DNA from: Bacillus sp. 491mf
GTDB lineage: Bacteria; Bacillota; Bacilli; Bacillales; Bacillaceae_G
Length of the DNA stretch: 47,864 bases
Assembly: GCF_900112415.1 (NCBI RefSeq)
Contig: NZ_FOLV01000029.1
Coordinates: 1 to 47,864, forward strand
Direction of reading: 5' to 3'
The notes beneath the pieces are model-generated. The model was given only the letters and a program-made list of their open reading frames with translations, was not told the DNA's origin and did no database searches. Positions within the stretch are counted from its first letter, which is position 1; each line of letters begins with the position of its first letter. A program made the translations under genes and the position numbers. Positions 2,383-36,941 of this stretch are shown here, one piece after another.

Positions 2383-2784
2383 CTACAGAGAAAAAGAATA
2401 CTTCTTTTTTTCTATAAAGAAAGCACAAAGGAAAATAATAAGGAAAGCGAATAATGACATCATTGGTATAGTTAAGAAACCAAAATATTGTACGTCTATG
2501 TTGCTACAATTTGTTTCAATCCCACAAGCAGGATTTTTTATTTGCCAAGTTTGAAGAATAACTTGATATAAAGCAAAAGCTAATCCTATCCCCGAGAAAA
2601 CTTTTATATATATTGTAATGTCTTTATGCTTTTTCCATTTAGAAATACCAATTAATAATGGGATAGAATACATAAAAATTCTTTGATACCAACAGAGATC
2701 GCAAGGTGGAAGTTCTTTTATTTCACTAAAATACAAACTTCCAATTGTTGCTAAAGATGAAACAATAAATGCTAAGCGCAGCAT
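2383..2784 (-). CDS. DsbB/BdbC-type thiol oxidoreductase
   Basis: A 133-residue membrane protein with four hydrophobic segments. It has the two cysteine pairs of the DsbB/BdbC family: CDLC after the first segment (ELPPCDLCWYQR) and a second extracytoplasmic pair (CGIETNC). The family reoxidises a DsbA-type partner and passes electrons to quinone. The length is normal for BdbC/BdbB. AAAGGA lies nine bases before the ATG. It is the last gene of the peptide cluster, 28 bases after the DsbA-like gene. The pair parallels the dedicated BdbA/BdbB thiol enzymes encoded in the sublancin cluster of B. subtilis, which suggests this operon's peptide product carries a disulfide. Confidence 0.85.
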   Translation of the reverse strand: MLRLAFIVSSLATIGSLYFSEIKELPPCDLCWYQRIFMYSIPLLIGISKWKKHKDITIYIKVFSGIGLAFALYQVILQTWQIKNPACGIETNCSNIDVQYFGFLTIPMMSLFAFLIIFLCAFFIEKKKYSFSL

Positions 2785-2812
2785 TTATATCATTCCTTTC
2801 ACTAAACTTGAA

Positions 2813-3418
2813 TTAATTAGCTTCTGCTTTTGTTAATAACTTTTTAAATTCCTCTTTACTATAAACTCCTACAAATTTCTTCCCATTTATATAAAAGGAT
2901 GGAACTTCTTTTATTCCTCGTTCTTTCAAGTCTATGTTTATACGATTCATAGTTTCTTTTCGCTTATTTTGTGTCTCTGTATCAATATTTTCAAGACCCA
3001 AAATTTGTTTAACCTCTTCTTCGTTTTTTGCGTTACTCCATTGATCTTGTTTTTCAAAAGCGGTTTTTATCATATTAAAGTTCTCATTATTATTGGAGAA
3101 ATTTTTATAAACGTACTGATCATTTGCAAACCTTTGAACATCTACAGGTTTAAAAACATAAAAAATCTTTTTCTCATCTATATATTTTTGCAATACATCT
3201 TGAATATTTTGATGTAATTTTTTACAATCCGGACATTGGAAGCTTGAATATTCAATAAATTGCAATGGTGCAGATTTATCACCAACAGCAATTCCTTCAG
3301 ATAAATCTATTGGTTTAGAACTCGAACCACTGGTTTGTTTACAAGATGTGAAAATTAGTGGAATTATAATAAACAAAGCTACAATTAATAATTTAGAACA
3401 TATTCTCTTATAATCCAT
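2813..3418 (-). CDS. DsbA/BdbD-like thioredoxin-fold lipoprotein
   Basis: A 201-residue protein with an N-terminal hydrophobic signal ending in a lipobox (LIFTSC, Cys about 26), so probably anchored to the outer face of the membrane. The DsbA-type active site CPDC (about 63-66, in SSFQCPDCKKLH) and the cis-proline loop (EVPSFYING) are both present, with the helical insert typical of DsbA/BdbD between them. It would introduce or shuffle disulfides in exported proteins, with the adjacent BdbC-like protein as its reoxidant. It lies between the small membrane protein and bdbC-like genes on one transcript. Family assignment is secure; the dedicated substrate (the 69-residue peptide) is inference from context. 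Confidence 0.85.
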   Translation of the reverse strand: MDYKRICSKLLIVALFIIIPLIFTSCKQTSGSSSKPIDLSEGIAVGDKSAPLQFIEYSSFQCPDCKKLHQNIQDVLQKYIDEKKIFYVFKPVDVQRFANDQYVYKNFSNNNENFNMIKTAFEKQDQWSNAKNEEEVKQILGLENIDTETQNKRKETMNRINIDLKERGIKEVPSFYINGKKFVGVYSKEEFKKLLTKAEAN

Positions 3419-3435
3419 AGCTACTGTCCTATCCT

Positions 3436-3702
3436 TTACTTAGAATTTGTTATTTTTTGAACAACAAAAGTTATAATAAATGAAATTGCAAACACTATTC
3501 CCATTAAAATAAAGAAATTAGGTTTTAATGAGAAAGAAAAACCTGATTCATCCATGCTTACAGATACACTATTAAATATCAAACTACTTTTAGAAGTTCC
3601 TGAAAATATGTAATAGAAGACAATACCTATTGTTAAAAACGGAAATACAAAAAAGCTGGAAACAGAAGAGAAAATTAGTGAATTTTTAAAAGATGGAATC
3701 AT
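3436..3702 (-). CDS. Small two-TM membrane protein, possible immunity protein
   Basis: Encodes 88 residues: a hydrophobic segment at about 11-34, a polar extracytoplasmic stretch rich in Ser and Phe (about 35-60) and a second hydrophobic segment at about 62-82, ending in a short basic tail. AGGAGG lies six to seven bases before the ATG, and the gene starts only four bases after the M50 peptidase stop, so it is translated with the cluster. I recognise no family. Small membrane proteins in this position of bacteriocin operons often give self-immunity, which is a guess from context only. Confidence 0.6.
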   Translation of the reverse strand: MIPSFKNSLIFSSVSSFFVFPFLTIGIVFYYIFSGTSKSSLIFNSVSVSMDESGFSFSLKPNFFILMGIVFAISFIITFVVQKITNSK

Positions 3703-3706
3703 AAAA

Positions 3707-4576
3707 TTAACCTCCTAATTTATTAAGCATAAGTTGTTCCACAATAGATTTCCCATCTCCTACGAATGGAAGTAAGTAAAGTATGTGTAGTGCAAAGGTA
3801 ATAAAAATAATATTTAATGTGTAAGCTAATGAACCACTTACACCCAACAATTGCGTAAGTATGATCCCTAACACACCGAATATTCCAGGGATTAGTGGTC
3901 CTAATACAGTAATCCAAATCATTTTTTTTTGATAAGGCATAATCACTGGTCTTACCAATCTAAGGGACAACAAGTCACTTGCAATAAAACCTGGATATTT
4001 ACTAGTCATTTTTCTTTGCATGTAAGCATGCAAAGTTTCATGCAAAGAAAAACTTGTGATAATACCAATATATGATATTGAAAAATAATAAGCTAAAGAT
4101 AAAATAAAATCTGATTGTATAAAGCTGTATGCAACAATACATAGAATCATTACGATAGTCCAAAACAAGACAATTTTTCGAATTACAACCAACAGCATTT
4201 TTAAGAATATGGAAAAAAAATCAAAGTCCCCAATATTAAATCGTTCTTTATACCCTATTTTATACTGGGAAAAAAAATGAAGTAAGGCATCTTTGAATTT
4301 ATTTCCAGTTTCATATTTCCAGTTTAACATATAATTTTGATTTAAACTTCCAAATAAAGAAGCAACATCATGGAATAGTGTATTTTCATCTATATTAAAT
4401 TTAGTATTTAAATTATTAATAATTTTTTCCATATCCTGCTTTCCATCTATCTCTGTTAACATTACTTTAGCGGTACTATTCATAGGTAAAGATACATCAA
4501 GAGTTGCGTCATATACGCTACGATTTTTGATAGACACTCCTGAAGGAAAATAAGGTACTAGTTTCCGTTTATTCAT
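3707..4576 (-). CDS. M50 membrane metallopeptidase with N-terminal PqqD-like segment
   Basis: A 289-residue protein. Residues 1-90 look like a PqqD/RiPP-recognition type segment (LVPYFPSGVSIKNRSVYDA, then a helical half with EIDGKQDMEKIINNL), which in RiPP systems binds leader peptides. Hydrophobic segments follow, with the zinc motif HETLH at 179-183 and a late FVGDGKS (D274) that fits the third zinc ligand of site-2-protease-type M50 enzymes. The same fold accompanies ABC exporters in the B. subtilis yyd cluster (YydH). The probable role is intramembrane or leader cleavage of the 69-residue peptide. The start overlaps the permease gene by 8 bases behind GGAGG. Confidence 0.8.
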   Translation of the reverse strand: MNKRKLVPYFPSGVSIKNRSVYDATLDVSLPMNSTAKVMLTEIDGKQDMEKIINNLNTKFNIDENTLFHDVASLFGSLNQNYMLNWKYETGNKFKDALLHFFSQYKIGYKERFNIGDFDFFSIFLKMLLVVIRKIVLFWTIVMILCIVAYSFIQSDFILSLAYYFSISYIGIITSFSLHETLHAYMQRKMTSKYPGFIASDLLSLRLVRPVIMPYQKKMIWITVLGPLIPGIFGVLGIILTQLLGVSGSLAYTLNIIFITFALHILYLLPFVGDGKSIVEQLMLNKLGG

Positions 4577-6032
4577 TTTTCAACCTCCATCTATTAGTTA
4601 AAGCAATTATTATACCAAGTAATATTTCTGCTAGAATAATACTTCCAAATTTTAAAACCTCATTAGTTTGTCCTATAATTTGATTTCCAATGAATACAAT
4701 TGGAATCAGGGAACATAGGATAAAAATAAAAGCTAATATTCCTGCATAAGGGTTATTTTTATCTAAAGGTATAATAGTTCCTGCTAAATAGAAGGCTGCT
4801 ATTGAATTTATTACAATAAGAATAATTTGAAATGATTCTTTAAATGTGTCAGGAGTATATAACAATAATAAACAAAAGATGACTAATTGTATTAAAGATA
4901 AAATACATAGACCTATGAACTTTCCGGTAAGAACTTTAAGAGATGTAATGTTATATGTTTTATATGCTAAATACATTTTCTTATCATTTCCGAAAGAGTT
5001 TAAAGCAATAATCCCTGTTATTCCAGCCAAAGCAATAATAATAACTGAATTATCCTGGAAATTAAACTTAAGTTTGAATAGTATTACAAGTATTATTATT
5101 AAAATAGAGTTTAATAAGTTTTCTTCATTTCGACATTGGGACTTAACCTCTTTAACAATAAGTGCTCCTAATTTATTCCGTGGGATGGGAAGGAAACGAA
5201 ATAATTTAAGAGAACGTTTCTCAGATTTTATATTTATGAGAAACAAAGAGAAAAACGATAGTAGAATTACTCCTATATAACCAATGATGATAATTGGTAT
5301 ATTAACTTTCATATATGCAAGTTCCCCGATAACCCCAAGAAAAATAGGAGAAGCAAAATAAGTAACATTATAATCAAAAACTGTAAATGTATTAAGCATC
5401 CCTTTGATACTTAAACTTTCTAATCCGTATATTAAACAAACTAAAATTACTAATAATAATGTGAGAAGCTTACCAAAAGGTAATTTGCATATCTTTACAA
5501 GAAAAGTTGAAATGTTATAAATGAATTGCATTAAACATAATACAAAAAAGCTTTGCAACAATAAACCGAAAAGAAAGGCACAACTAAAAATGAATCCTGC
5601 CTTTTGTGTGAAGAATGCAGGTACCATAATGATACTGATCATACAAAATACTAGAGATAAAATTACACTAGAAAATGGAATGAAATATCCTAAATTCTTT
5701 TCGAATAAATTTACAGGAAACCAGCTTAACTGAATAGATAAGCGATCTTGATCAGATGCCATTGCTTTAAAAAAAATGAAAAAAACAAATGTTAAAATAG
5801 AAGCATTTAAATACATTGAAACTGTCAGTAACGTAATAGATCTTGTATCTCCATTTAGAAAACCTTGCAAACTTACACTAGTAATTTGATATCCTCCAAA
5901 GACTGCAATAGAAATTATTGATAATGTGAAAACACTAGCTATGAACACCTTCATCTTCGTATCAAGGAGTTTCCGTATTTCTTTTTTCCACATTTTTAGC
6001 ATTAAACTAGAAATTATTAATGATTTTTTCAA
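4569..6032 (-). CDS. ABC exporter permease of the peptide cluster
   Basis: About 487 residues with some twelve hydrophobic segments and no enzymatic motif; a short cytoplasmic N-terminus (KKEIRKLLDTKMKVF) precedes the first segment, as in ABC-2-type permeases. It is the membrane partner of the ATPase encoded immediately upstream, with which it overlaps by about 26 bases. I place the start at TTG 6032, seven bases after AGGAG; the GTG at 6041 would leave no room for that site. The sequence is very AT-rich. It likely exports the processed peptide or removes it from the membrane (immunity); the two cannot be told apart from sequence. Confidence 0.75.
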   Translation of the reverse strand: MKKSLIISSLMLKMWKKEIRKLLDTKMKVFIASVFTLSIISIAVFGGYQITSVSLQGFLNGDTRSITLLTVSMYLNASILTFVFFIFFKAMASDQDRLSIQLSWFPVNLFEKNLGYFIPFSSVILSLVFCMISIIMVPAFFTQKAGFIFSCAFLFGLLLQSFFVLCLMQFIYNISTFLVKICKLPFGKLLTLLLVILVCLIYGLESLSIKGMLNTFTVFDYNVTYFASPIFLGVIGELAYMKVNIPIIIIGYIGVILLSFFSLFLINIKSEKRSLKLFRFLPIPRNKLGALIVKEVKSQCRNEENLLNSILIIILVILFKLKFNFQDNSVIIIALAGITGIIALNSFGNDKKMYLAYKTYNITSLKVLTGKFIGLCILSLIQLVIFCLLLLYTPDTFKESFQIILIVINSIAAFYLAGTIIPLDKNNPYAGILAFIFILCSLIPIVFIGNQIIGQTNEVLKFGSIILAEILLGIIIALTNRWRLKNE

Positions 6033-6753
6033 AATGATCACTCCTACTACCTAGCATAGACACTTTCATAAATACTTCTTCTAAACTGCTAGAATTATGC
6101 TGGGTTTTAAGTTCTTCAACTTTGCCTTCTGCTATTTTTTCTCCTTTAGCAATGATAGCAATGCGATTACAAAGTTTTTCTGCTCCTAACAAATCATGAG
6201 TAGATAGAAGAATACTTCCCCCTTTATTTATATATCTTTCCATAAGCTTTTTAGTCATAATAATTGCTTCTACATCTAATCCACGAAAAGGTTCATCAAG
6301 TATAATAACTTTGCTTTTCAGCATAAAAGCTGCAATTAGTTGTATTTTTTTCTTCATACCATGAGAATACGTTTCTATTGGCTCATTTAAAGCTTCTTTC
6401 ATATCAAATATCTCTATTAAATCTTCTGTCTTCTCTGAATTTATTAGTTCATACATAGAGGTAACAAAATCTAGATATTCTTTTCCAGTAAGAGCTTCAG
6501 GTAGAATTAAATCATCAGGAACATAAGCAATATTTTGTTTAAATTCTTTAGATTGGCTAGAATATCCGTTTAATTCCACATTCCCTGATGTAGGAGAAAT
6601 AATACCAAGTAAACAATTAATTAAAGAAGTTTTTCCTGAACCATTGGGGCCTGCAATTCCCATAATTTCTTTATTATTAATAATCAAATTAAAATTTTGG
6701 ACACCCCATACAGAATTCTTGTATTGTTTTGATAGCTGATGAATTTTTAGCAT
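6007..6753 (-). CDS. ABC transporter ATP-binding protein of the peptide cluster
   Basis: A 248-residue ATPase of the CcmA/bacitracin-exporter type. Walker A is GPNGSGKTS (about 35-43), the Q-loop region follows, the signature is a divergent YSHGMKKK rather than LSGGQ, Walker B is VIILDEP, and the switch histidine is in STHDL. GGAGGTG precedes the ATG. It is separated from the peptide gene by about 97 bases containing a strong stem, and overlaps the permease gene downstream. The SHGMKKK signature is common in ABC-2 exporters of peptides and antibiotics. Confidence 0.88.
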   Translation of the reverse strand: MLKIHQLSKQYKNSVWGVQNFNLIINNKEIMGIAGPNGSGKTSLINCLLGIISPTSGNVELNGYSSQSKEFKQNIAYVPDDLILPEALTGKEYLDFVTSMYELINSEKTEDLIEIFDMKEALNEPIETYSHGMKKKIQLIAAFMLKSKVIILDEPFRGLDVEAIIMTKKLMERYINKGGSILLSTHDLLGAEKLCNRIAIIAKGEKIAEGKVEELKTQHNSSSLEEVFMKVSMLGSRSDHFEKIINNF

Positions 6754-6787
6754 TATTTCGCACCTCCAAAAATATATATATAAACTA

Positions 6788-6819
6788 ATTTAACCACCCT
6801 TTAAAAAGGATGGCTAAAT
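6788..6819 (-). terminator. Stem between peptide gene and exporter genes
   Basis: The two 14-base arms (ATTTAGCCATCCTT and AAGGGTGGTTAAAT in minus-strand reading) pair fully if two G-U wobbles are allowed, around a 4-base loop. There is no clean U-run after it. It lies between the peptide stop and the ATPase ribosome site, a position where partial termination or RNA processing raises precursor output over downstream enzymes. Confidence 0.55.
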
Positions 6820-6849
6820 TGTAAATGATCATTAATAAATTAAGCCTAA

Positions 6850-7059
6850 CTAACTACACTGAATTTTAACTTGAAGACCGTTAACCCACTGCACACCGCC
6901 AGTGAAAGATCCTTTGCCATTCGCCAGACACCATATAGCTGCTCCAAGAACTACCGTAGCTCCCAAAGCTAGTAATACAGCGACGAATACTAGCCACCAA
7001 GCCTGATCTTGAATAATGTTTAAAGTATTAAACTCTACTTGTGGTGCAACATATTGCAT
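6850..7059 (-). CDS. 69-residue hydrophobic two-cysteine peptide (putative bacteriocin/signal precursor)
   Basis: Short polar N-terminus (residues 1-20, MQYVAPQVEFNTLNIIQDQA) suitable as a leader, then Trp-Trp and a long Ala/Val/Leu-rich helix (about 21-46), then a Gly-rich tail (GKGSFTGGVQW) ending QCS. The only cysteines are C44 and C68, well placed for one disulfide. GGGGAGGG lies six bases before the ATG. It is the first gene before an ABC exporter, an M50 peptidase with a PqqD-like segment and a DsbA/DsbB pair, which argues it is the substrate of all of them. By eye its coding DNA is more GC-rich than the genes behind it. I do not recognise the peptide family; it recalls SDP of B. subtilis only in being hydrophobic and disulfide-capable. 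Confidence 0.75.
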   Translation of the reverse strand: MQYVAPQVEFNTLNIIQDQAWWLVFVAVLLALGATVVLGAAIWCLANGKGSFTGGVQWVNGLQVKIQCS

Positions 7060-7447: not shown

Positions 7448-7648
7448 GAATGCTGTAATGACAAGCTTGTTTCAATGTTCAAGAGGTACGTTACCTACTT
7501 GCCTCCTCTAGAAAAGCAAATTAAAAGGCATTGTACAACTTACAAACTTCGAATTGGACATCGCACCGTCACGGGGTTATTACGAACAAAATTAGCAATA
7601 CACGTTAACCGAAAGACCGCACAAAGAATACTACCTGTTCCCGGTTGA
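7448..7648 (+). pseudogene. IS3-family transposase (OrfB) remnant
   Basis: An open frame ending at TGA 7646-7648 contains KLRIGHRTVTGLL and AIHVNRKTAQRIL, matching the HTH_21 segment (YGYRRITxLL, VNxKRVxRIM) at the start of IS3-family OrfB transposases. There is no start, no DDE domain and no companion orfA, so only a fragment is left. It marks past insertion next to the peptide cluster. Confidence 0.7.
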
Positions 7649-7811: not shown

Positions 7812-8582
7812 CTATTCAATAACTTGTTGATTTTTCGCTTTCTTATAGAAATAAATACCTAAACATATACCTATGATCACACTACCAATAATCGTTGCTG
7901 TAATATACCGTGGATCTTTATTTATTTCACTTGGAATAATGTGCTCTAAGGTTGGACCAATACAAATTGTAAATGCTACAAAGATCGTAAGCCACGATTT
8001 TGCATACAGTGCAAAAAGAACAAAAATCAGCATACATACGCCAGCAATTATATAATTTTGCGCCCTCGTTGCCACAAAATAATACGTATCCATTTTTCCA
8101 TCCATCCAAAAATAGAATACTAACCAGCCACCAATGGCAATACAATTAGCTAGCAACATTAGAAATAGCGACTTTTTTGTAGATGGATATACTTTAGGGA
8201 TTCCTTTCAATAGAGTAATTGCAAATACAGCAAGAGTTAAAAATAGCGGTAATGATCCAAATAACAATATATTTTGAGAAATTTTAAATTCTCCCTTAAG
8301 AGCTGGCGGGAAGGCCATATAAGCGATAATAACCAAGATTGCTGCAGGAATGAGTTTCATTAACCCTTCTTTATCTACAGGCAACTCTTTCCCGATATTC
8401 TTCATATGCTGCTTACGACTTTTCCCAATAATATGATCTACACTCTTCCCTCTTTTTTCAGCTTCTATTAAGTGAATTTCTAGCTCGTCGACAATTTCAT
8501 TGATATCTTCATCTTTCTTGCCCCGCTGCAATAAATACATTCTCAGTTCAATTAAAAATTGCTCGGACTTCGTTGATAACAT
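7812..8582 (-). CDS. HAAS/DUF1700-like multi-pass membrane protein
   Basis: The 256-residue product starts with a soluble helical segment (about 1-60: FLIELRMYLLQRGKKDEDINEIVDELEIHL) of the HAAS type that commonly pairs with PadR regulators, followed by six or so hydrophobic segments from about residue 75. The gene follows the PadR gene with one base between them, so the two are co-transcribed and probably co-regulated. In this arrangement the membrane protein is thought to sense or relay envelope stress, but no specific ligand is known to me. GGGGG lies eight bases before the ATG. Confidence 0.75.
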   Translation of the reverse strand: MLSTKSEQFLIELRMYLLQRGKKDEDINEIVDELEIHLIEAEKRGKSVDHIIGKSRKQHMKNIGKELPVDKEGLMKLIPAAILVIIAYMAFPPALKGEFKISQNILLFGSLPLFLTLAVFAITLLKGIPKVYPSTKKSLFLMLLANCIAIGGWLVFYFWMDGKMDTYYFVATRAQNYIIAGVCMLIFVLFALYAKSWLTIFVAFTICIGPTLEHIIPSEINKDPRYITATIIGSVIIGICLGIYFYKKAKNQQVIE

Positions 8583-8583
8583 G

Positions 8584-8913
8584 TTATTTTCCCCCTTTAT
8601 TTATCACGTTTTCAACAGATAGTTTTAAATCGTTCCATCGGTTTTTAAAACTATCCAATTCCTTCTCCCCTAATTCTGTCAAAAGATAGTACTTTCGTTT
8701 TGGCCCAGCAGTTGATTCCCTTAACACACTTGTCAGTAATCCTTCTTTTTGCATACGCAATAATAAAGGGTAAATGGTTCCTTCACTAAAGGAGTGAAAA
8801 CCATAACTTTGTAATTTCTCCGTTAACTCGTAGCCGTATATTTCTCCTTCTTGAATAATGGCTAGAATACAGCCTTCTAGAATGCCCTTTAGCATTTGCG
8901 TTGAATCAGCCAT
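8584..8913 (-). CDS. PadR-family transcriptional regulator
   Basis: About 109 residues of winged-helix type: GILEGCILAIIQEGEIYGYELTEKL and EGTIYPLLLRMQKEGLL are the PadR HTH and wing, with ESTAGPKRKYYLLTELGEKEL following and a short C-terminal helix for dimerisation. I start at ATG 8913 because AAGGAG stands seven to eight bases before it; the longer frame from TTG 8961 runs through the operator region. Three palindromes of the form CTTGYAATGYAAG lie directly upstream (8950-9037), so the gene very probably represses its own operon with the HAAS-type gene. Confidence 0.88.
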   Translation of the reverse strand: MADSTQMLKGILEGCILAIIQEGEIYGYELTEKLQSYGFHSFSEGTIYPLLLRMQKEGLLTSVLRESTAGPKRKYYLLTELGEKELDSFKNRWNDLKLSVENVINKGGK

Positions 8914-8949
8914 TTTCTCTCTCCTTTTTTTGTACATACTTCTTAATAT

Positions 8950-9037
8950 CTTGTAATGCAAGGTAAATAATTATACTAATAACTTGCAATGTAAGTGTTA
9001 TAACCATAAAATACCATACACTAACTTGTAATGCAAG
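8950..9037 (-). promoter_or_regulatory. Three PadR-type operators and promoter
   Basis: CTTGTAATGCAAG at 8950-8962 and 9025-9037 and CTTGCAATGTAAG at 8983-8995 are near-palindromic and nearly identical. A minus-strand promoter fits between them (TTGCAT inside the outermost site, 17 bases, TATTTT). This layout is what an autoregulating PadR repressor needs. Confidence 0.65.
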
Positions 9038-32715: not shown

Positions 32716-33714
32716 TTACATCGTATGCTTAAATACAAATAACTCTTCCTTCGTTTGTGATATAGGTTGCGTCATTTCTCCCTCTTCCTGCTCTGTTCTC
32801 TCTCCTAGTCTTGCTTTCTCTACCGCATCCTGGATACATTTTACAATCATATTCCCTGAAAAAATGGTTAATCCAAAACAGGTAATCGGTACAAGAGGAA
32901 TCCATGGATGCACTGCCAAAGAACGAAAGTATACCCCAATTAGGCCTGACCATTCATGAGTAACAGAGTCGGTCTCTCCTCCATAAAACTTTATCGTTCC
33001 CCCAAAGAATAAATCCAATAAACCGAGATGCAATAAAATAATAAGCGTCTGTACAAACTGCTGCATAAATACAATGATGAAGGTTGAGTACAAATGCGGA
33101 AACACGTGTTTTATAAGAAGATGCCGTTTACTTCCTCCTAAAATTTTAGCAGCATCAATAAATTCTTCTGTTAATACCTTACGAATTTCATTTGCAATGT
33201 ATAAAGAAAGGGTAGGAACTGCGAGCGCCGTTAATAAAATAATTTCAAATGAAGCCCGTTCAAAAAAAGTTGACATTTCTTCGCCGTTATCAAATTGAAT
33301 CGCATGTCGTAATAAAAAGGCTGCAATCATAATCATCGGAATAATTGTAAAACTATCAAAAAAAGCTTCTAATTTTGTAAATCCTCTCTTGACGTACATA
33401 CCGAGAAAAGCACCGAAACAAATACCAAATACAATACGTAACAATGCAATGAGTATGGAAATTCCAATTGTCCACTTTGCTCCTTCAATTACTAAATTTA
33501 ACAAATCAAATCCTTTTTGATCTGTTCCAAGCAAAAACTGAAACGAAGGTGGAAAGGGAGGTACTTCTGGTGTTCCATCTTCATTATACTGAATGGACAC
33601 CCTTCGAATATTTCCATCGTTAAAAATTGTATTTCCAATACTTAATAAAATGAATATGATAATAAATGTACAACTAACCCAAAAGCGCCTATCACGTTTC
33701 AAATGTTGCCACAT
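32716..33714 (-). CDS. OppC/DppC-like ABC permease, unit 1
   Basis: A 332-residue membrane protein with an N-terminal segment, a loop containing PPSFQFLLGTDQKGFDLLN (the OppC-type LGTD..G.D motif) and the ATPase-coupling EAA loop EEFIDAAKILGGSKRHLLIKHVFPHL. It is the second gene of a two-gene permease operon, starting just after the first gene's stop behind AGAGAGG. No solute-binding or ATPase gene accompanies it. It is close to 90% identical by eye to the copy at 35039-36037, so this operon has been tandemly duplicated. Peptide or nickel uptake families share this fold; the substrate is unknown. Confidence 0.85.
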   Translation of the reverse strand: MWQHLKRDRRFWVSCTFIIIFILLSIGNTIFNDGNIRRVSIQYNEDGTPEVPPFPPSFQFLLGTDQKGFDLLNLVIEGAKWTIGISILIALLRIVFGICFGAFLGMYVKRGFTKLEAFFDSFTIIPMIMIAAFLLRHAIQFDNGEEMSTFFERASFEIILLTALAVPTLSLYIANEIRKVLTEEFIDAAKILGGSKRHLLIKHVFPHLYSTFIIVFMQQFVQTLIILLHLGLLDLFFGGTIKFYGGETDSVTHEWSGLIGVYFRSLAVHPWIPLVPITCFGLTIFSGNMIVKCIQDAVEKARLGERTEQEEGEMTQPISQTKEELFVFKHTM

Positions 33715-33715
33715 C

Positions 33716-34618
33716 TTATAACCTCTCTTTCATTGCATTTGGTACAAGATAATGAAACAGCTTAAAAATAATAAAAATAGGTATATAAAGCAGCAGCAAA
33801 CTCACCGTAAAAAGAGGAATACCTGTTGCAAAATGCTCCTCAGCAGCTACTCTTACAAATACAAACATTCCATATGTATTAAACATCCATTCAATAATGT
33901 ACAAATTAGATAACATAAACCAAATGTTCGTTTTTGTAAAAAAAAGCGTACTTAATAACACATTACGTAAAACATGATGATTTAAAATATAAAGCTTATC
34001 TAGTCCTTTTGCCTTTGCAAATAGAACATAATCTTTTTCAAGTTCTGTTTCAAAACGCAATAATACTAGTTTCACAAACATAATCGTTGTCGGTACACTT
34101 AAACAAATAATTGGTAATCCTCGAACGGATTGCTCCCCTACCCCTGAAATACTTACAGCTAAAATACCTGTTTGTTTAAAAATCCAAATGACGAAAAGCT
34201 GCGAGCCAATAATAAGAAGAATATCTGGAATAGATTCAAGAAAGAGTAAAAATGATTTAATTTTCTTCTGAACTCTAGCATTACTTCGTAAAACGATATA
34301 GACAATTAAAAAGGCAATCAAAAGTGAAATAAAAAAAGCTGCTAAAAAAATAATCATCGTTTCTTTATAGTGGATAAATAGTTGTGGAAATAGTGGTTTT
34401 GGTGTTGGTCTTGTACTATTACTAACTGGCATATACGTCATCGATGATAGATGCAGTAGACTATTGCATACCATCTTAATCGTTTCTATATATTTATGAA
34501 AATCTACTTTTAGGCCTTGAAACAAACCAGGTAACGCTCCTATACAAATAATTCCGACAATCGATAAGAAAAGTTTCACAACGATTTCCGAACTATGTAT
34601 AAATACCCTCTTTGCCAT
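33716..34618 (-). CDS. OppB/DppB-like ABC permease, unit 1
   Basis: About 300 residues from ATG 34618 (behind GGGGG), matching the start and length of its duplicate; the frame upstream to 34669 runs through the conserved inverted repeat and is not needed. Six hydrophobic segments; the coupling loop is EKDYVLFAKAKGLDKLYILNHHVLRNVL, as in OppB-type permeases. The N-terminal half carries a long extracytoplasmic loop. It forms the heteromeric channel with the OppC-like partner. ATPases and binding protein must come from elsewhere. Confidence 0.85.
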   Translation of the reverse strand: MAKRVFIHSSEIVVKLFLSIVGIICIGALPGLFQGLKVDFHKYIETIKMVCNSLLHLSSMTYMPVSNSTRPTPKPLFPQLFIHYKETMIIFLAAFFISLLIAFLIVYIVLRSNARVQKKIKSFLLFLESIPDILLIIGSQLFVIWIFKQTGILAVSISGVGEQSVRGLPIICLSVPTTIMFVKLVLLRFETELEKDYVLFAKAKGLDKLYILNHHVLRNVLLSTLFFTKTNIWFMLSNLYIIEWMFNTYGMFVFVRVAAEEHFATGIPLFTVSLLLLYIPIFIIFKLFHYLVPNAMKERL

Positions 34619-34651
34619 ATTCGCCTGCCCCCAATCCTTTTTATCCCATTT

Positions 34652-34676
34652 TATACAATATTTTTTCAATTGTATA
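34652..34676 (-). promoter_or_regulatory. Conserved inverted repeat upstream of unit 1
   Basis: TATACAAT, nine bases, ATTGTATA. The same arms and spacer length occur at 36975-36999 before unit 2 although the spacer sequence differs, which points to a protein-binding site. Confidence 0.55.
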
Positions 34677-35038: not shown

Positions 35039-36037
35039 TTACATCGTATGCTTAAATACAAATAATTCTTCCTTCGCTTGTGTTATAGATTGTGTCATTT
35101 CTCCCTCTTCCTGCCCCGATCTCTCCCCTAATCTTGCTCTCGCCACCGCATCTTGAATACATTTCACAATCATATTCCCTGAATAGATGGTTAATCCAAA
35201 ACAAGTAATTGGTACAAGTGGAATCCATGGATGCACTGATAAAGAACGGAAGTATACCCCAATTAATCCTGACCATTCATGAGTAAAAGAATCGGTCTCT
35301 CCTCCATAAAAACTTACCGTTCCCCCAAAAAATAAATCTAATAAACCGAGGTGCAATAAAACGATAAGTGTCTGAACAAACTGCTGCATAAGTACAATGA
35401 CGAAAGTTGGGTACAAATGCGGAAACACGTGTTTTATAAGAAGATGTCGTTTACTTCCTCCTAAAATTTTAGCAGCATCAATAAATTCTTCTGTTAATAC
35501 TTTACGAATTTCGTTGGCAATGTATAAAGACAGAGTCGGTATTGCAAGCGCTGTTAATAAAATAATTTCAAACGAAGCTCGTTCAAAAAAAGTTGACGTC
35601 GCTTCGCCGCTCCCAAATTTAATTGCATGTTGTAATAAAAAAGCTGCAATCATAACCATCGGAATAATTGTAAAACTATCAAAAAAAGCTTCTAACTTTG
35701 TAAACCCTCTCTTTACGTACATACCGAGTAAAACACCGAAGCAAACTCCAAATACAATTCGTAACAATGCGATGAGTATGGAAATTCCAATTGTCCATTT
35801 TGCTCCTTCAATTACTAAGTTTAATAAATCAAATCCCTTTCTATCTGTTCCAAGTAAGAACTGAAATGAAGGTGAAAATGGAGGTACTTCTGGTATTCCC
35901 TCTTTATTAAACTGAATGGATACCTTCCGAATATGTCCATCATTAAAAATGGTATTTCCAACACTTAATAAAAGAAATATAATAATGAATCCACTACTAA
36001 TCCAAAAGCGCTTATCACGTTTCAAATGTTGCCACAT
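35039..36037 (-). CDS. OppC/DppC-like ABC permease, unit 2
   Basis: A 332-residue duplicate of the protein at 32716-33714, same motifs (LGTDRKGFDLLN; EEFIDAAKILGGSKRHLLIK). Differences are scattered and mostly conservative (e.g. FILL/FLLL, RHAIQFDNGEE/QHAIKFGSGEA), and the ORF is intact, so both copies appear to be under selection. It follows the OppB-like partner after one base. Confidence 0.85.
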   Translation of the reverse strand: MWQHLKRDKRFWISSGFIIIFLLLSVGNTIFNDGHIRKVSIQFNKEGIPEVPPFSPSFQFLLGTDRKGFDLLNLVIEGAKWTIGISILIALLRIVFGVCFGVLLGMYVKRGFTKLEAFFDSFTIIPMVMIAAFLLQHAIKFGSGEATSTFFERASFEIILLTALAIPTLSLYIANEIRKVLTEEFIDAAKILGGSKRHLLIKHVFPHLYPTFVIVLMQQFVQTLIVLLHLGLLDLFFGGTVSFYGGETDSFTHEWSGLIGVYFRSLSVHPWIPLVPITCFGLTIYSGNMIVKCIQDAVARARLGERSGQEEGEMTQSITQAKEELFVFKHTM

Positions 36038-36038
36038 C

Positions 36039-36941
36039 TTAAACCCTCTCTTTCATTGCATTTGGCACGAAATAATGAAACAGCTTAAAAATAATAAAAA
36101 CAGGTACATAAAGCAGCAGCAAACTAACTGTAAACAGAGGAATACCTGTCACAAAATCCCTCTCGGCTGCTACTCTTACAAATACAAACATGCCGTATGT
36201 ATTAAACATCCATTCAATAATGTACAAATTGGATAACATAAACCAAATATTTGTTTTCGCAAAAAAGAGCGTACTTAATAGCACATTACGTAATACGTGA
36301 TGATTTAAAATATAAAGCTTGTCCAGCCCTTTTGCCCTTGCGAATAGGACATAATCTTTTTCAAGCTCGGTTTCAAAACGCAGTAATACTAGTTTTATAA
36401 ACATAATCGTTGTCGGTGCACTTAAACAAATAATAGGTAATCCTCGAACGGATTCCTCTCCCACCCCGGCAATACTTACAGTTAAAATACCTGTTTGTTT
36501 AAAAATCCAAACGACGAAAAGCTGCGAACCAATAATAAGAAGAATATCAGGAATAGATTCGAGAAAAAGTAAAAATGATTTAATTTTCTTTTGAACATTA
36601 GCATTACTCCGTAAAACGATATAAACAATGAAAAAAGAAATCAAAAGTGAAAGAAAAAAGGCTGCTAAAAAAATAATCATCGTCTCTTTATAGTGGATAA
36701 GTAGTTGTGGAAATAGCGGCCTGGGAATTGGACGTGCGCTATTGCTAAATGGTATATACGTCATCGATGATAGATGCACCAAATTGTTACATACCATCTT
36801 AATTGTTTCTACATATTTATGAAAATCTACTTTTAAACCTTGGAACAAACCAGGTAACGCCCCTACACAAATAATTCCGACAATCGATAAAAAAAGTTGC
36901 ACAACGACTTCCGAACTATGTATAAATACCCTCTTTGCCAT
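36039..36941 (-). CDS. OppB/DppB-like ABC permease, unit 2
   Basis: A 300-residue duplicate of the protein at 33716-34618. The coupling loop is EKDYVLFARAKGLDKLYILNHHVLRNVL; the N-terminus MAKRVFIHSSEVVVQLFLS is nearly identical in both. The most divergent stretches are in extracytoplasmic loops (FVRVAAERDFVTG versus FVRVAAEEHFATG), where substrate or binding-protein contacts would lie. GGGTCAGG precedes the ATG; a conserved inverted repeat stands about 35-60 bases upstream. Confidence 0.85.
   Translation of the reverse strand: MAKRVFIHSSEVVVQLFLSIVGIICVGALPGLFQGLKVDFHKYVETIKMVCNNLVHLSSMTYIPFSNSARPIPRPLFPQLLIHYKETMIIFLAAFFLSLLISFFIVYIVLRSNANVQKKIKSFLLFLESIPDILLIIGSQLFVVWIFKQTGILTVSIAGVGEESVRGLPIICLSAPTTIMFIKLVLLRFETELEKDYVLFARAKGLDKLYILNHHVLRNVLLSTLFFAKTNIWFMLSNLYIIEWMFNTYGMFVFVRVAAERDFVTGIPLFTVSLLLLYVPVFIIFKLFHYFVPNAMKERV

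What the first reader, a model, noticed from the sequence alone, without database searches (positions are those of the whole stretch)
2383..7059. Compact cluster for a disulfide-bonded, M50-processed membrane peptide
Seven co-directional genes: a 69-residue hydrophobic peptide with two cysteines, ABC ATPase and permease, M50 metallopeptidase with a PqqD-like N-terminus, a small two-TM protein, a DsbA-like lipoprotein and a DsbB/BdbC-like protein. Each enzyme family is identifiable from motifs; the combination is not one I know. It has no LanM/LanB, no radical SAM, no peptidase-containing exporter and no glycosyltransferase, so it is neither lanthipeptide, epipeptide (yyd), sublancin nor SDP. 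I infer leader recognition by the PqqD-like part, cleavage in or at the membrane by M50, one disulfide made by the dedicated Dsb pair, and export by the ABC pair, giving a toxin or signal.
Basis: partly seen in the sequence, partly recalled or inferred. Interest (0 to 1): 0.88.

Follow-up and report, generated by a model that had tools for sequence, protein, structure and literature searches.

The report
TMcin-type pore-forming bacteriocin gene cluster
This seven-gene cluster most likely makes a TMcin, a recently described small protein that bacteria secrete to punch holes in rival bacteria, in a variant whose cutting enzyme carries an extra part for grabbing the precursor.

Summary
The seven genes are real and co-directional at the stated coordinates. 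The combination is not unknown: it is a TMcin cluster (Dickey et al. 2025; Nur et al. 2026 preprint), a class of transmembrane-helix bacteriocins that form pores. Precursor, protease and two-TM protein match staphylococcal-type TMcin clusters by profile. The discovery paper cites a B. licheniformis DSM 13 chromosome; licheniformis-group relatives carry this gene order with 67-70% identical precursors. Roles by analogy: tmcA precursor, tmcBC exporter, tmcP leader protease, tmcE escort, DsbA/DsbB disulfide. Predicted mature peptide: A20-S69, disulfide C44-C68.

Apparently unreported: TmcP here is a PqqD-like RRE fused to a site-2 protease. Of 35 loci examined, 28 of 28 with the RRE part have a Yx[AS]P leader motif, 0 of 6 without it (one undetermined). 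The lineages are few, so this is association, not proof. DsbA follows tmcE in 8 of 28, although the preprint says tmcD is missing outside staphylococci. The precursor is 70% identical between Bacillus and Paraclostridium, while ATPase, permease, protease and DsbA are 24-47%. No experiment was done. New variant of a known kind.

The parts
6850..7059 (-). tmcA-like precursor, 69 aa: leader M1-Q19 with Y3-V-A-P6 motif, predicted mature peptide A20-S69 (transmembrane helix, then beta hairpin closed by C44-C68)
7003..7059 (-). predicted leader (residues 1-19), with the RRE-type motif YVAP
   Evidence: boundary inferred from TMcin spacing (C25 of the mature peptide) and from the profile alignment starting just before DQAW; not measured
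6853..7002 (-). predicted mature TMcin (residues 20-69, 50 aa)
   Evidence: not measured
6787..6820 (-). terminator-like hairpin between tmcA and tmcB, perhaps an attenuator that raises the precursor:enzyme ratio (inference)
   Evidence: 3 terminator-like sites in the region against 1.6 +/- 1.5 in shuffles; z -3.0; strong hairpins in the same gap of 4 of 6 other loci folded, z -2.0 to -5.2, none in 2
6007..6753 (-). tmcB-like ABC ATPase
4569..6041 (-). tmcC-like ABC permease, 13 hydrophobic segments by simple hydropathy
3707..4576 (-). tmcP-like leader peptidase: N-terminal PqqD-like RRE fused to a site-2 (M50/DUF3267-like) protease
4307..4564 (-). PqqD-like RRE part of tmcP (about residues 5-90)
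4028..4042 (-). HETLH zinc motif (residues 179-183); distal Asp is D274 in LLPFVGDGK
3436..3702 (-). tmcE-like two-TM escort protein
2813..3418 (-). tmcD-like DsbA-family lipoprotein, active site CPDC (C62-C65)
2383..2784 (-). DsbB/BdbC-like quinone-linked re-oxidase, CDLC (C28-C31)

Best explanation
A TMcin biosynthetic gene cluster of the Bacillus gene order (tmcA-B-C-P-E) with an added disulfide pair. The precursor inserts in the producer's membrane through one helix. The PqqD-like RRE of TmcP holds the Yx[AS]P leader on the cytoplasmic side, and its site-2 protease part, helped by the two-TM escort TmcE, cuts near Q19/A20. The DsbA-like lipoprotein, re-oxidised by the DsbB-like protein, joins C44 and C68. 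The TmcBC transporter pulls the peptide out of the membrane, and it then oligomerises in membranes of other Gram-positive bacteria as a beta-barrel pore ringed by helices. Shown here: gene content, homology to TMcin clusters, RRE-protease architecture, leader-motif association. Shown by others only for TMcin-G1905: cleavage by TmcP, disulfide by TmcD, export by TmcBC, TmcE requirement, pores. Inferred: that these hold for this cluster, the cut site, and the RRE-leader contact.
For: Precursor: profile-profile match of window-type precursors to classical ones, E 5e-17, over the mature region only; 65.7 bits to the 98-aa S. epidermidis pHOB2 precursor; W21, W43 and both Cys kept in all 7 rows. 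A 25-residue spacing from the A/G before the first W to Cys1 in 34 of 34 precursors, Cys2 at 49-50, against the published C25/C50. TmcP: profile match E 1.6e-12 over the protease core; a classical relative has H68 and D157, the preprint's TmcP H68 and D158. TmcE: E 1.6e-4, probability 50%, 21.2 bits to pHOB2. Neighbourhood, 35 loci: permease in 34, protease in 33, TmcE in 33; exceptions below. RRE: PDB profile hits to PqqD 5sxy (1e-8), site-2 protease 3b4r (8e-4), lasso RREs 6jx3 and 5v1u (2e-3, 4e-3); Foldseek ranks lasso RREs and 3b4r first, weakly. The discovery paper names NC_006270.3, i.e. B. licheniformis DSM 13. AlphaFold2 gives helix 12-46 and strands 52-58, 62-68 for the peptide.
Against: No product or activity was measured for this cluster. 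The window-type permease profile does not match the pHOB2 permease; the classical permease profile matches the window's at 1e-6. The TmcE match is weak. The peptide model is of low confidence (pLDDT 66, pTM 0.38). Foldseek E-values are 0.04-0.05, none under 0.001. The window's own PqqD match is just below Pfam's cut-off. The HTH plus membrane-protein pair beside several TMcin clusters is not seen beside the window's operon. Exceptions to the neighbourhood: L018 ends at a contig end; L054 (Roseburia plasmid) has no permease match in the 12.2 kb seen; L055 (Peribacillus plasmid) keeps only the PqqD part of TmcP and no TmcE match. The leader association rests on few independent lineages.
Confidence: 0.9

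Rival explanations
1. Same cluster, but the product is a membrane-derived signal or cannibalism-type factor for the producer's own population rather than a weapon.
For: The precursor is very strongly conserved, unlike many fast-diversifying bacteriocins; no clear immunity gene is visible in the operon. A LytTR regulator lies about 3.5 kb beyond the cluster on two Paraclostridium plasmids, with a histidine kinase next to it on one, and a response-regulator-like ORF (judged by eye) about 3 kb from tmcA in L040.
Against: The homologue TMcin-G1905 kills Gram-positive bacteria and forms large pores. No regulator or kinase is seen at a constant place in the neighbourhoods printed (6 loci, 5). Conservation of a pore-forming part is an equally good reason for low divergence.
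Confidence: 0.06
2. The PqqD-like domain is a scaffold or membrane-orientation module and does not bind the leader; the Yx[AS]P motif is kept for another reason.
For: The PqqD-type proteases form one side of a branch (97/93 support; 12 of the 27 intact fusions and 5 others in the tree, long branches flagged), so the association with Yx[AS]P could be shared ancestry; TMcin-G1905 manages without an RRE as far as the papers say.
Against: YxxP-type leaders are bound by PqqD-like RREs of lasso peptides (recalled; ranks those RREs with bound leaders first, weakly); the motif sits 17-18 residues before the core in every PqqD locus measured; it is also present in L055, whose core is nearer the classical type; daptides have an RRE fused to a site-2 protease and a conserved precursor motif.
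Confidence: 0.2
3. A wholly new RiPP class.
For: The peptide has no NCBIfam or Pfam family above cut-off and no PHROGs family at 0.01.
Against: Homology of precursor, protease and escort to TMcin clusters, and the B. licheniformis genome cited in print.
Confidence: 0.03

Closest known systems
TMcin clusters of Staphylococcus (TMcin-G1905 on pCT545, from the papers; pHOB2 of S. epidermidis, examined here)
   Same: Precursor with one TM helix and a C-terminal two-Cys loop, ABC ATPase and permease, site-2 type protease, two-TM escort, DsbA-like protein (on pHOB2 seen only as a CPDC motif in an open frame)
   Different: pHOB2 order B-C-E-P-A against A-B-C-P-E here; pHOB2 TmcP has no PqqD part (172 aa); leader 45 residues in G1905 against a predicted 19 here; DsbA is a separate transcription unit in staphylococci; no DsbB annotated on the 8,955 bases of pHOB2 seen
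TMcin clusters of the Bacillus licheniformis and B. pumilus groups
   Same: Gene order, PqqD-protease fusion, Yx[AS]P leader, 67-74% identical precursor
   Different: No DsbA or DsbB match in the 14 stretches L004-L017; the 4 named licheniformis-group loci have an HTH gene upstream, 3 of them with the small membrane-protein motif beside it, not seen in the window
Daptides (DapP)
   Same: RRE fused N-terminally to an intramembrane site-2 protease, aliphatic precursor with a conserved N-terminal motif (passages)
   Different: Daptides carry enzymes that form a C-terminal Dmp; none here
Epipeptide EpeX/EpeP
   Same: M50 intramembrane protease processes an antimicrobial peptide (passage of a review, PMC10885120)
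   Different: Epipeptides need a radical SAM epimerase (recalled); none here
Sublancin/glycocin operons
   Same: Dedicated thiol-disulfide oxidoreductases beside a bacteriocin gene (recalled)
   Different: No glycosyltransferase or peptidase-containing exporter among the seven genes; precursor similarity to sublancin not tested

Membership tests
TMcin | Precursor homologous to TmcA, with TM helix in the mature part | tested here: met
   hydrophobic segment; helix in a low-confidence model
TMcin | Two conserved Cys closing a C-terminal loop at mature positions about 25 and 50 | tested here: met
   C25 and C49 if the core starts at A20; the start is set by alignment and the disulfide is not measured
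TMcin | Two conserved Trp flanking the helix | tested here: met
   W21 and W43, invariant
TMcin | ABC transporter genes tmcB and tmcC | tested here: met
   homology to the pHOB2 permease not detected
TMcin | Site-2/DUF3267-type protease tmcP | tested here: met
   profile match to non-PqqD TmcP E 1.6e-12; Pfam DUF3267 does not hit the window copy and hits one PqqD-type homologue below cut-off
TMcin | Two-TM escort tmcE | tested here: met
   weak match over 76 columns, E 1.6e-4, probability 50%; 21.2 bits to pHOB2
TMcin | Secreted, disulfide-bonded, pore-forming product | not testable with these tools
   shown in print for TMcin-G1905 only
Daptide | Oxidative decarboxylase, aminotransferase and methyltransferase genes | tested here: not met
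   none among the seven genes
Lanthipeptide / sactipeptide / epipeptide / glycocin | Class-defining modification enzyme (dehydratase, radical SAM, glycosyltransferase) | tested here: not met
   no such family in any of the seven proteins

The most novel reading that the evidence does not exclude
The TMcin family is built from exchangeable halves: one pore-forming peptide module served by two leader-recognition systems. In one, a bare site-2 protease reads a long leader; in the other, probably acquired once, an RRE-fused protease (as in daptides) reads a short Yx[AS]P leader. Two loci look like crosses: Actinoplanes L025 has a core near the Bacillus type but no RRE and no motif; Peribacillus L055 has a core nearer the classical type (72.6 against 53.6 bits) with a window-type permease, an RRE part and a YSSP leader. 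Lineages whose housekeeping enzymes cannot form the disulfide, perhaps including the anaerobic Peptostreptococcaceae, carry their own DsbA.
Probability: 0.5. Interest if true: 0.62.

Novelty: new variant of a known kind. Interest (0 to 1): 0.48.

Why it matters
TMcins are among the few small antibacterial peptides reported to form large stable pores, and in the parts I read the two papers do not say how the membrane-embedded precursor is recognised for cutting beyond the escort protein. A branch in which the protease carries its own leader-binding domain makes that question testable with a soluble domain and a short peptide. It also gives a genome-mining handle (RRE-site-2-protease beside a Yx[AS]P two-Cys helix peptide) and shows dedicated DsbA genes outside staphylococci, against the preprint's statement.

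Tried and rejected
New RiPP class: rejected on finding the TMcin papers and testing homology.

Phage or plasmid cargo: no relative of the precursor in viral contigs or phages; among plasmids the window precursor finds only 3 Paraclostridium records. No DNA match of window 1-25000 among plasmids. Window 25001-47864 was not searched.

First genome scan with the protease as a single sequence found no relative; the precursor alignment then gave 22 loci.

PadR plus membrane-protein pair at 7812-8961 as the cluster's regulators: a PadR pair also lies downstream in L022, but the partner proteins are not similar; left open.

Hits in G731, G924 and G944 (E 1e-4 to 7e-4) match 23-45 positions, two of them in frames of 419 and 707 codons; dropped as probable chance, leaving 1 clear of 391.

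Promoter-like sites over the operon are no more than in shuffles (28 against 32.8). Rfam and tRNA scans of the window: nothing.

It added one locus with a PqqD part (L055), two without (L053, L054) and two exceptions to the neighbourhood (L054, L055). It led me to move the novel case from 0.45 to 0.5, because L055 is a second cross between core type and leader system.
Full report
OBSERVATION. The window holds seven co-directional ORFs on the minus strand between 7059 and 2383, as described. In order of transcription: a 69-aa peptide, an ABC ATPase, a polytopic permease, a PqqD-M50 protein, an 88-aa two-TM protein, a DsbA-like lipoprotein with CPDC, and a DsbB-like protein with CDLC. Pfam gives ABC_tran, PqqD (just below its cut-off), Thioredoxin_4 and DsbB; the peptide, the permease and the two-TM protein match no curated family above cut-off. 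A terminator-like hairpin lies between the peptide gene and the ATPase gene.

RELATIVES. tblastn of plasmids with the peptide gave 3 records, all Paraclostridium bifermentans, 68-70% identical over the full length. Their gene order is the same up to the DsbA-like gene, followed by a DUF3267 gene in place of DsbB. A scan of genome contigs with the precursor alignment gave 22 loci, in the B. pumilus and B. licheniformis groups, Marininema, Metabacillus, Romboutsia, Paraclostridium, one Peptostreptococcaceae MAG and Actinoplanes. Between the window and Paraclostridium L002 the precursor is 70% identical, the ATPase 47%, DsbA 33%, the protease 26% and the permease 24%; the two-TM protein is not found by that blastp and is 28-30% identical in an alignment. 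The peptide is much better kept than its machinery.

WHAT IT IS. A literature search led to Nur et al. 2026 (PMC13252029, preprint; read: parts 1-4 of 5 and the figure section) and Dickey et al. 2025 (PMC12328743; read: parts 1-4 of 10, covering abstract to the start of the methods, plus term searches). TMcins are bacteriocins whose mature peptide keeps a transmembrane helix and forms large beta-barrel pores. Their core operon encodes tmcA (precursor), tmcB and tmcC (ABC exporter), tmcP (DUF3267 site-2 protease) and tmcE (two-TM escort); staphylococci add tmcD (DsbA). Mutagenesis in the preprint assigned each role for TMcin-G1905. The discovery paper states that homologues occur in Bacillota and Actinomycetota in three gene arrangements, and names NC_006270.3, which is B. 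licheniformis DSM 13 according to PMC5516005 (one passage). Whether its figure shows this exact arrangement I could not see, since figures are not held.

MEMBERSHIP TESTS. The pHOB2 precursor gene is 297 bp, the length given for tmcA of G1905. Window-type precursors match the classical ones at E 5e-17, aligned only from just before the helix onward, so the cores are homologous and the leaders are not alignable. Window-type TmcP matches non-PqqD TmcP at E 1.6e-12 over the protease core. TmcE matches at E 1.6e-4 with probability 50%. Against pHOB2 the window-type profiles score 65.7 bits (A), 43.7 (P) and 21.2 (E), with no match to the permease. Counting from the A or G before the first Trp, Cys1 is at 25 in 34 of 34 precursors and Cys2 at 49 or 50. 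I chose that start; the point is that the published C25 puts the cut there. Membership is well supported; the weak spots are permease and TmcE.

NEIGHBOURHOOD COUNT. I examined 35 loci (window, L001-L025, L039-L044; L053-L055). A tmcC-like permease is found in 34 (not in the 12.2 kb of the Roseburia plasmid L054), a tmcP-like protease in 33 and tmcE in 33 (both missing in L018, which ends at a contig end, and in L055, a Peribacillus plasmid where only the PqqD part of tmcP remains).

THE VARIANT. A PqqD-like part is present in 28 of the 35 (27 intact fusions and the cut-short L055), absent in 6 (L025, L039-L041, L053, L054), undetermined in L018. Pfam scores PqqD above cut-off in 4 of 5 homologues scanned, and just below in the window. 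A profile of 11 such proteins hits PqqD (5sxy, 1e-8), site-2 protease 3b4r (8e-4) and lasso-peptide RREs 6jx3 and 5v1u (2e-3, 4e-3). The AlphaFold2 model (pLDDT 80.5) has a mixed alpha/beta N-terminal part, then four long helices; simple hydropathy marks four segments at partly other places. Foldseek ranks leader-bound lasso RREs and 3b4r on top, at weak E-values of 0.04-0.05. All 28 loci have Yx[AS]P in the leader, and 0 of the 6 do; L018 has it too. On the protease core the PqqD type is one side of a branch with 97/93 support, in a tree of 12 PqqD-type and 5 other rows with long branches flagged, so the 28 are few independent events. An RRE fused to a site-2 protease is already known from daptides (PMC10036551, passages). 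The term PqqD occurs in neither TMcin paper's main text, nor do RRE or recognition element; supplements were not available.

CROSSES BETWEEN TYPES. L055 was in none of the profiles: its precursor scores 72.6 bits with the classical profile and 53.6 with the window-type one, its permease 279.7 bits with the window type and 9.9 with the classical, and its leader has YSSP. Actinoplanes L025 is 52% identical to the window precursor but has order A-B-C-E-P, no PqqD part and no motif; the classical profiles for C, E and P include L025 itself, so its scores there are circular, and its place in the tree is unsure.

DISULFIDE GENES. DsbA directly follows tmcE in 8 of the 28: the window, three P. bifermentans plasmids, P. 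ghonii, two Romboutsia and the MAG. DsbB joins only in the window. L042 has a DsbA-DsbB pair about 1.6 kb upstream of tmcA on the other strand, possibly a housekeeping pair. The Roseburia L054 cluster has a protein with two CxxC stretches after tmcP (by eye). The preprint says tmcD is missing outside staphylococci; these loci are exceptions. All seven Peptostreptococcaceae loci with flanks also carry a DUF3267-like HExxH gene after DsbA (Pfam run on one), role unknown.

MECHANISM AND LIMITS. By analogy with TMcin-G1905: membrane insertion, disulfide by the Dsb pair, RRE-guided leader removal by TmcP with TmcE, extraction by TmcBC, pore formation in target membranes. Purifying selection on tmcA is clear within species groups (dN/dS 0.17 and 0.06). 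The peptide model (helix 12-46, strands 52-58 and 62-68; pLDDT 65.7, pTM 0.38) agrees with the published fold at low confidence. Immunity is unknown; the preprint presumes that TmcE prevents self-harm during synthesis. No experiment exists here for this cluster.

VERDICT. Real, well conserved and most likely a TMcin cluster: a new variant of a known kind, of interest for its RRE-fused protease and dedicated Dsb pair rather than as a new class.

Noticed in passing
window 7475-7648 (+): Short ORF with an HTH_21 match just under Pfam's cut-off, perhaps a remnant of an IS3-type transposase, between the operon and the PadR genes.
   Followed up: partly
window 7812-8961 (-): PadR regulator and a membrane protein with weak HAAS/DUF1129 matches upstream of the operon; a PadR pair also lies downstream of the Romboutsia lituseburensis cluster (L022:15588-16819), but the partners are not similar.
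   Followed up: partly
L004:8805-9526, L014:8790-9514, L016:8790-9514, L017:9248-9514, L040:5616-6348, L041:9281-9963, L043:10763-11221: HTH regulator and/or a small membrane protein beside TMcin clusters of both types; the L004 and L041 membrane proteins are 27% identical. A candidate regulatory or immunity pair, not seen beside the window's operon.
   Followed up: partly
L023:9638-10216 and L040:6405-7042: Metabacillus kandeliae and genome G091 each have two tandem, near-identical TMcin precursors.
   Followed up: no
L022:6762-7467: A stand-alone PqqD protein and a transglutaminase-like protein (lasso peptide B1/B2-like) about 2.5 kb upstream of the TMcin precursor in Romboutsia lituseburensis.
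   Followed up: partly
L001, L002, L003, L020, L021, L022, L024, after the DsbA gene (e.g. L002:13337-13969): A second HExxH, DUF3267-type membrane protein at the end of each of the seven Peptostreptococcaceae clusters with flanks; possibly immunity or a second protease.
   Followed up: partly
L042:1217-1513: A second, isolated tmcE-like gene several kb from the TMcin operon in genome G199; a stand-alone escort could be an immunity gene.
   Followed up: no
L054:5977-8648: Roseburia plasmid with the order A-E-P, then a 510-aa protein with two CxxC stretches, and no permease match nearby: another TMcin arrangement.
   Followed up: partly
L055:6001-8714: Peribacillus plasmid cluster whose tmcP is cut short after the PqqD part: a decaying TMcin cluster.
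   Followed up: partly
window 32716-34669 and 35039-36941: Two tandem, closely similar pairs of ABC permease genes (a duplication, by eye).
   Followed up: no
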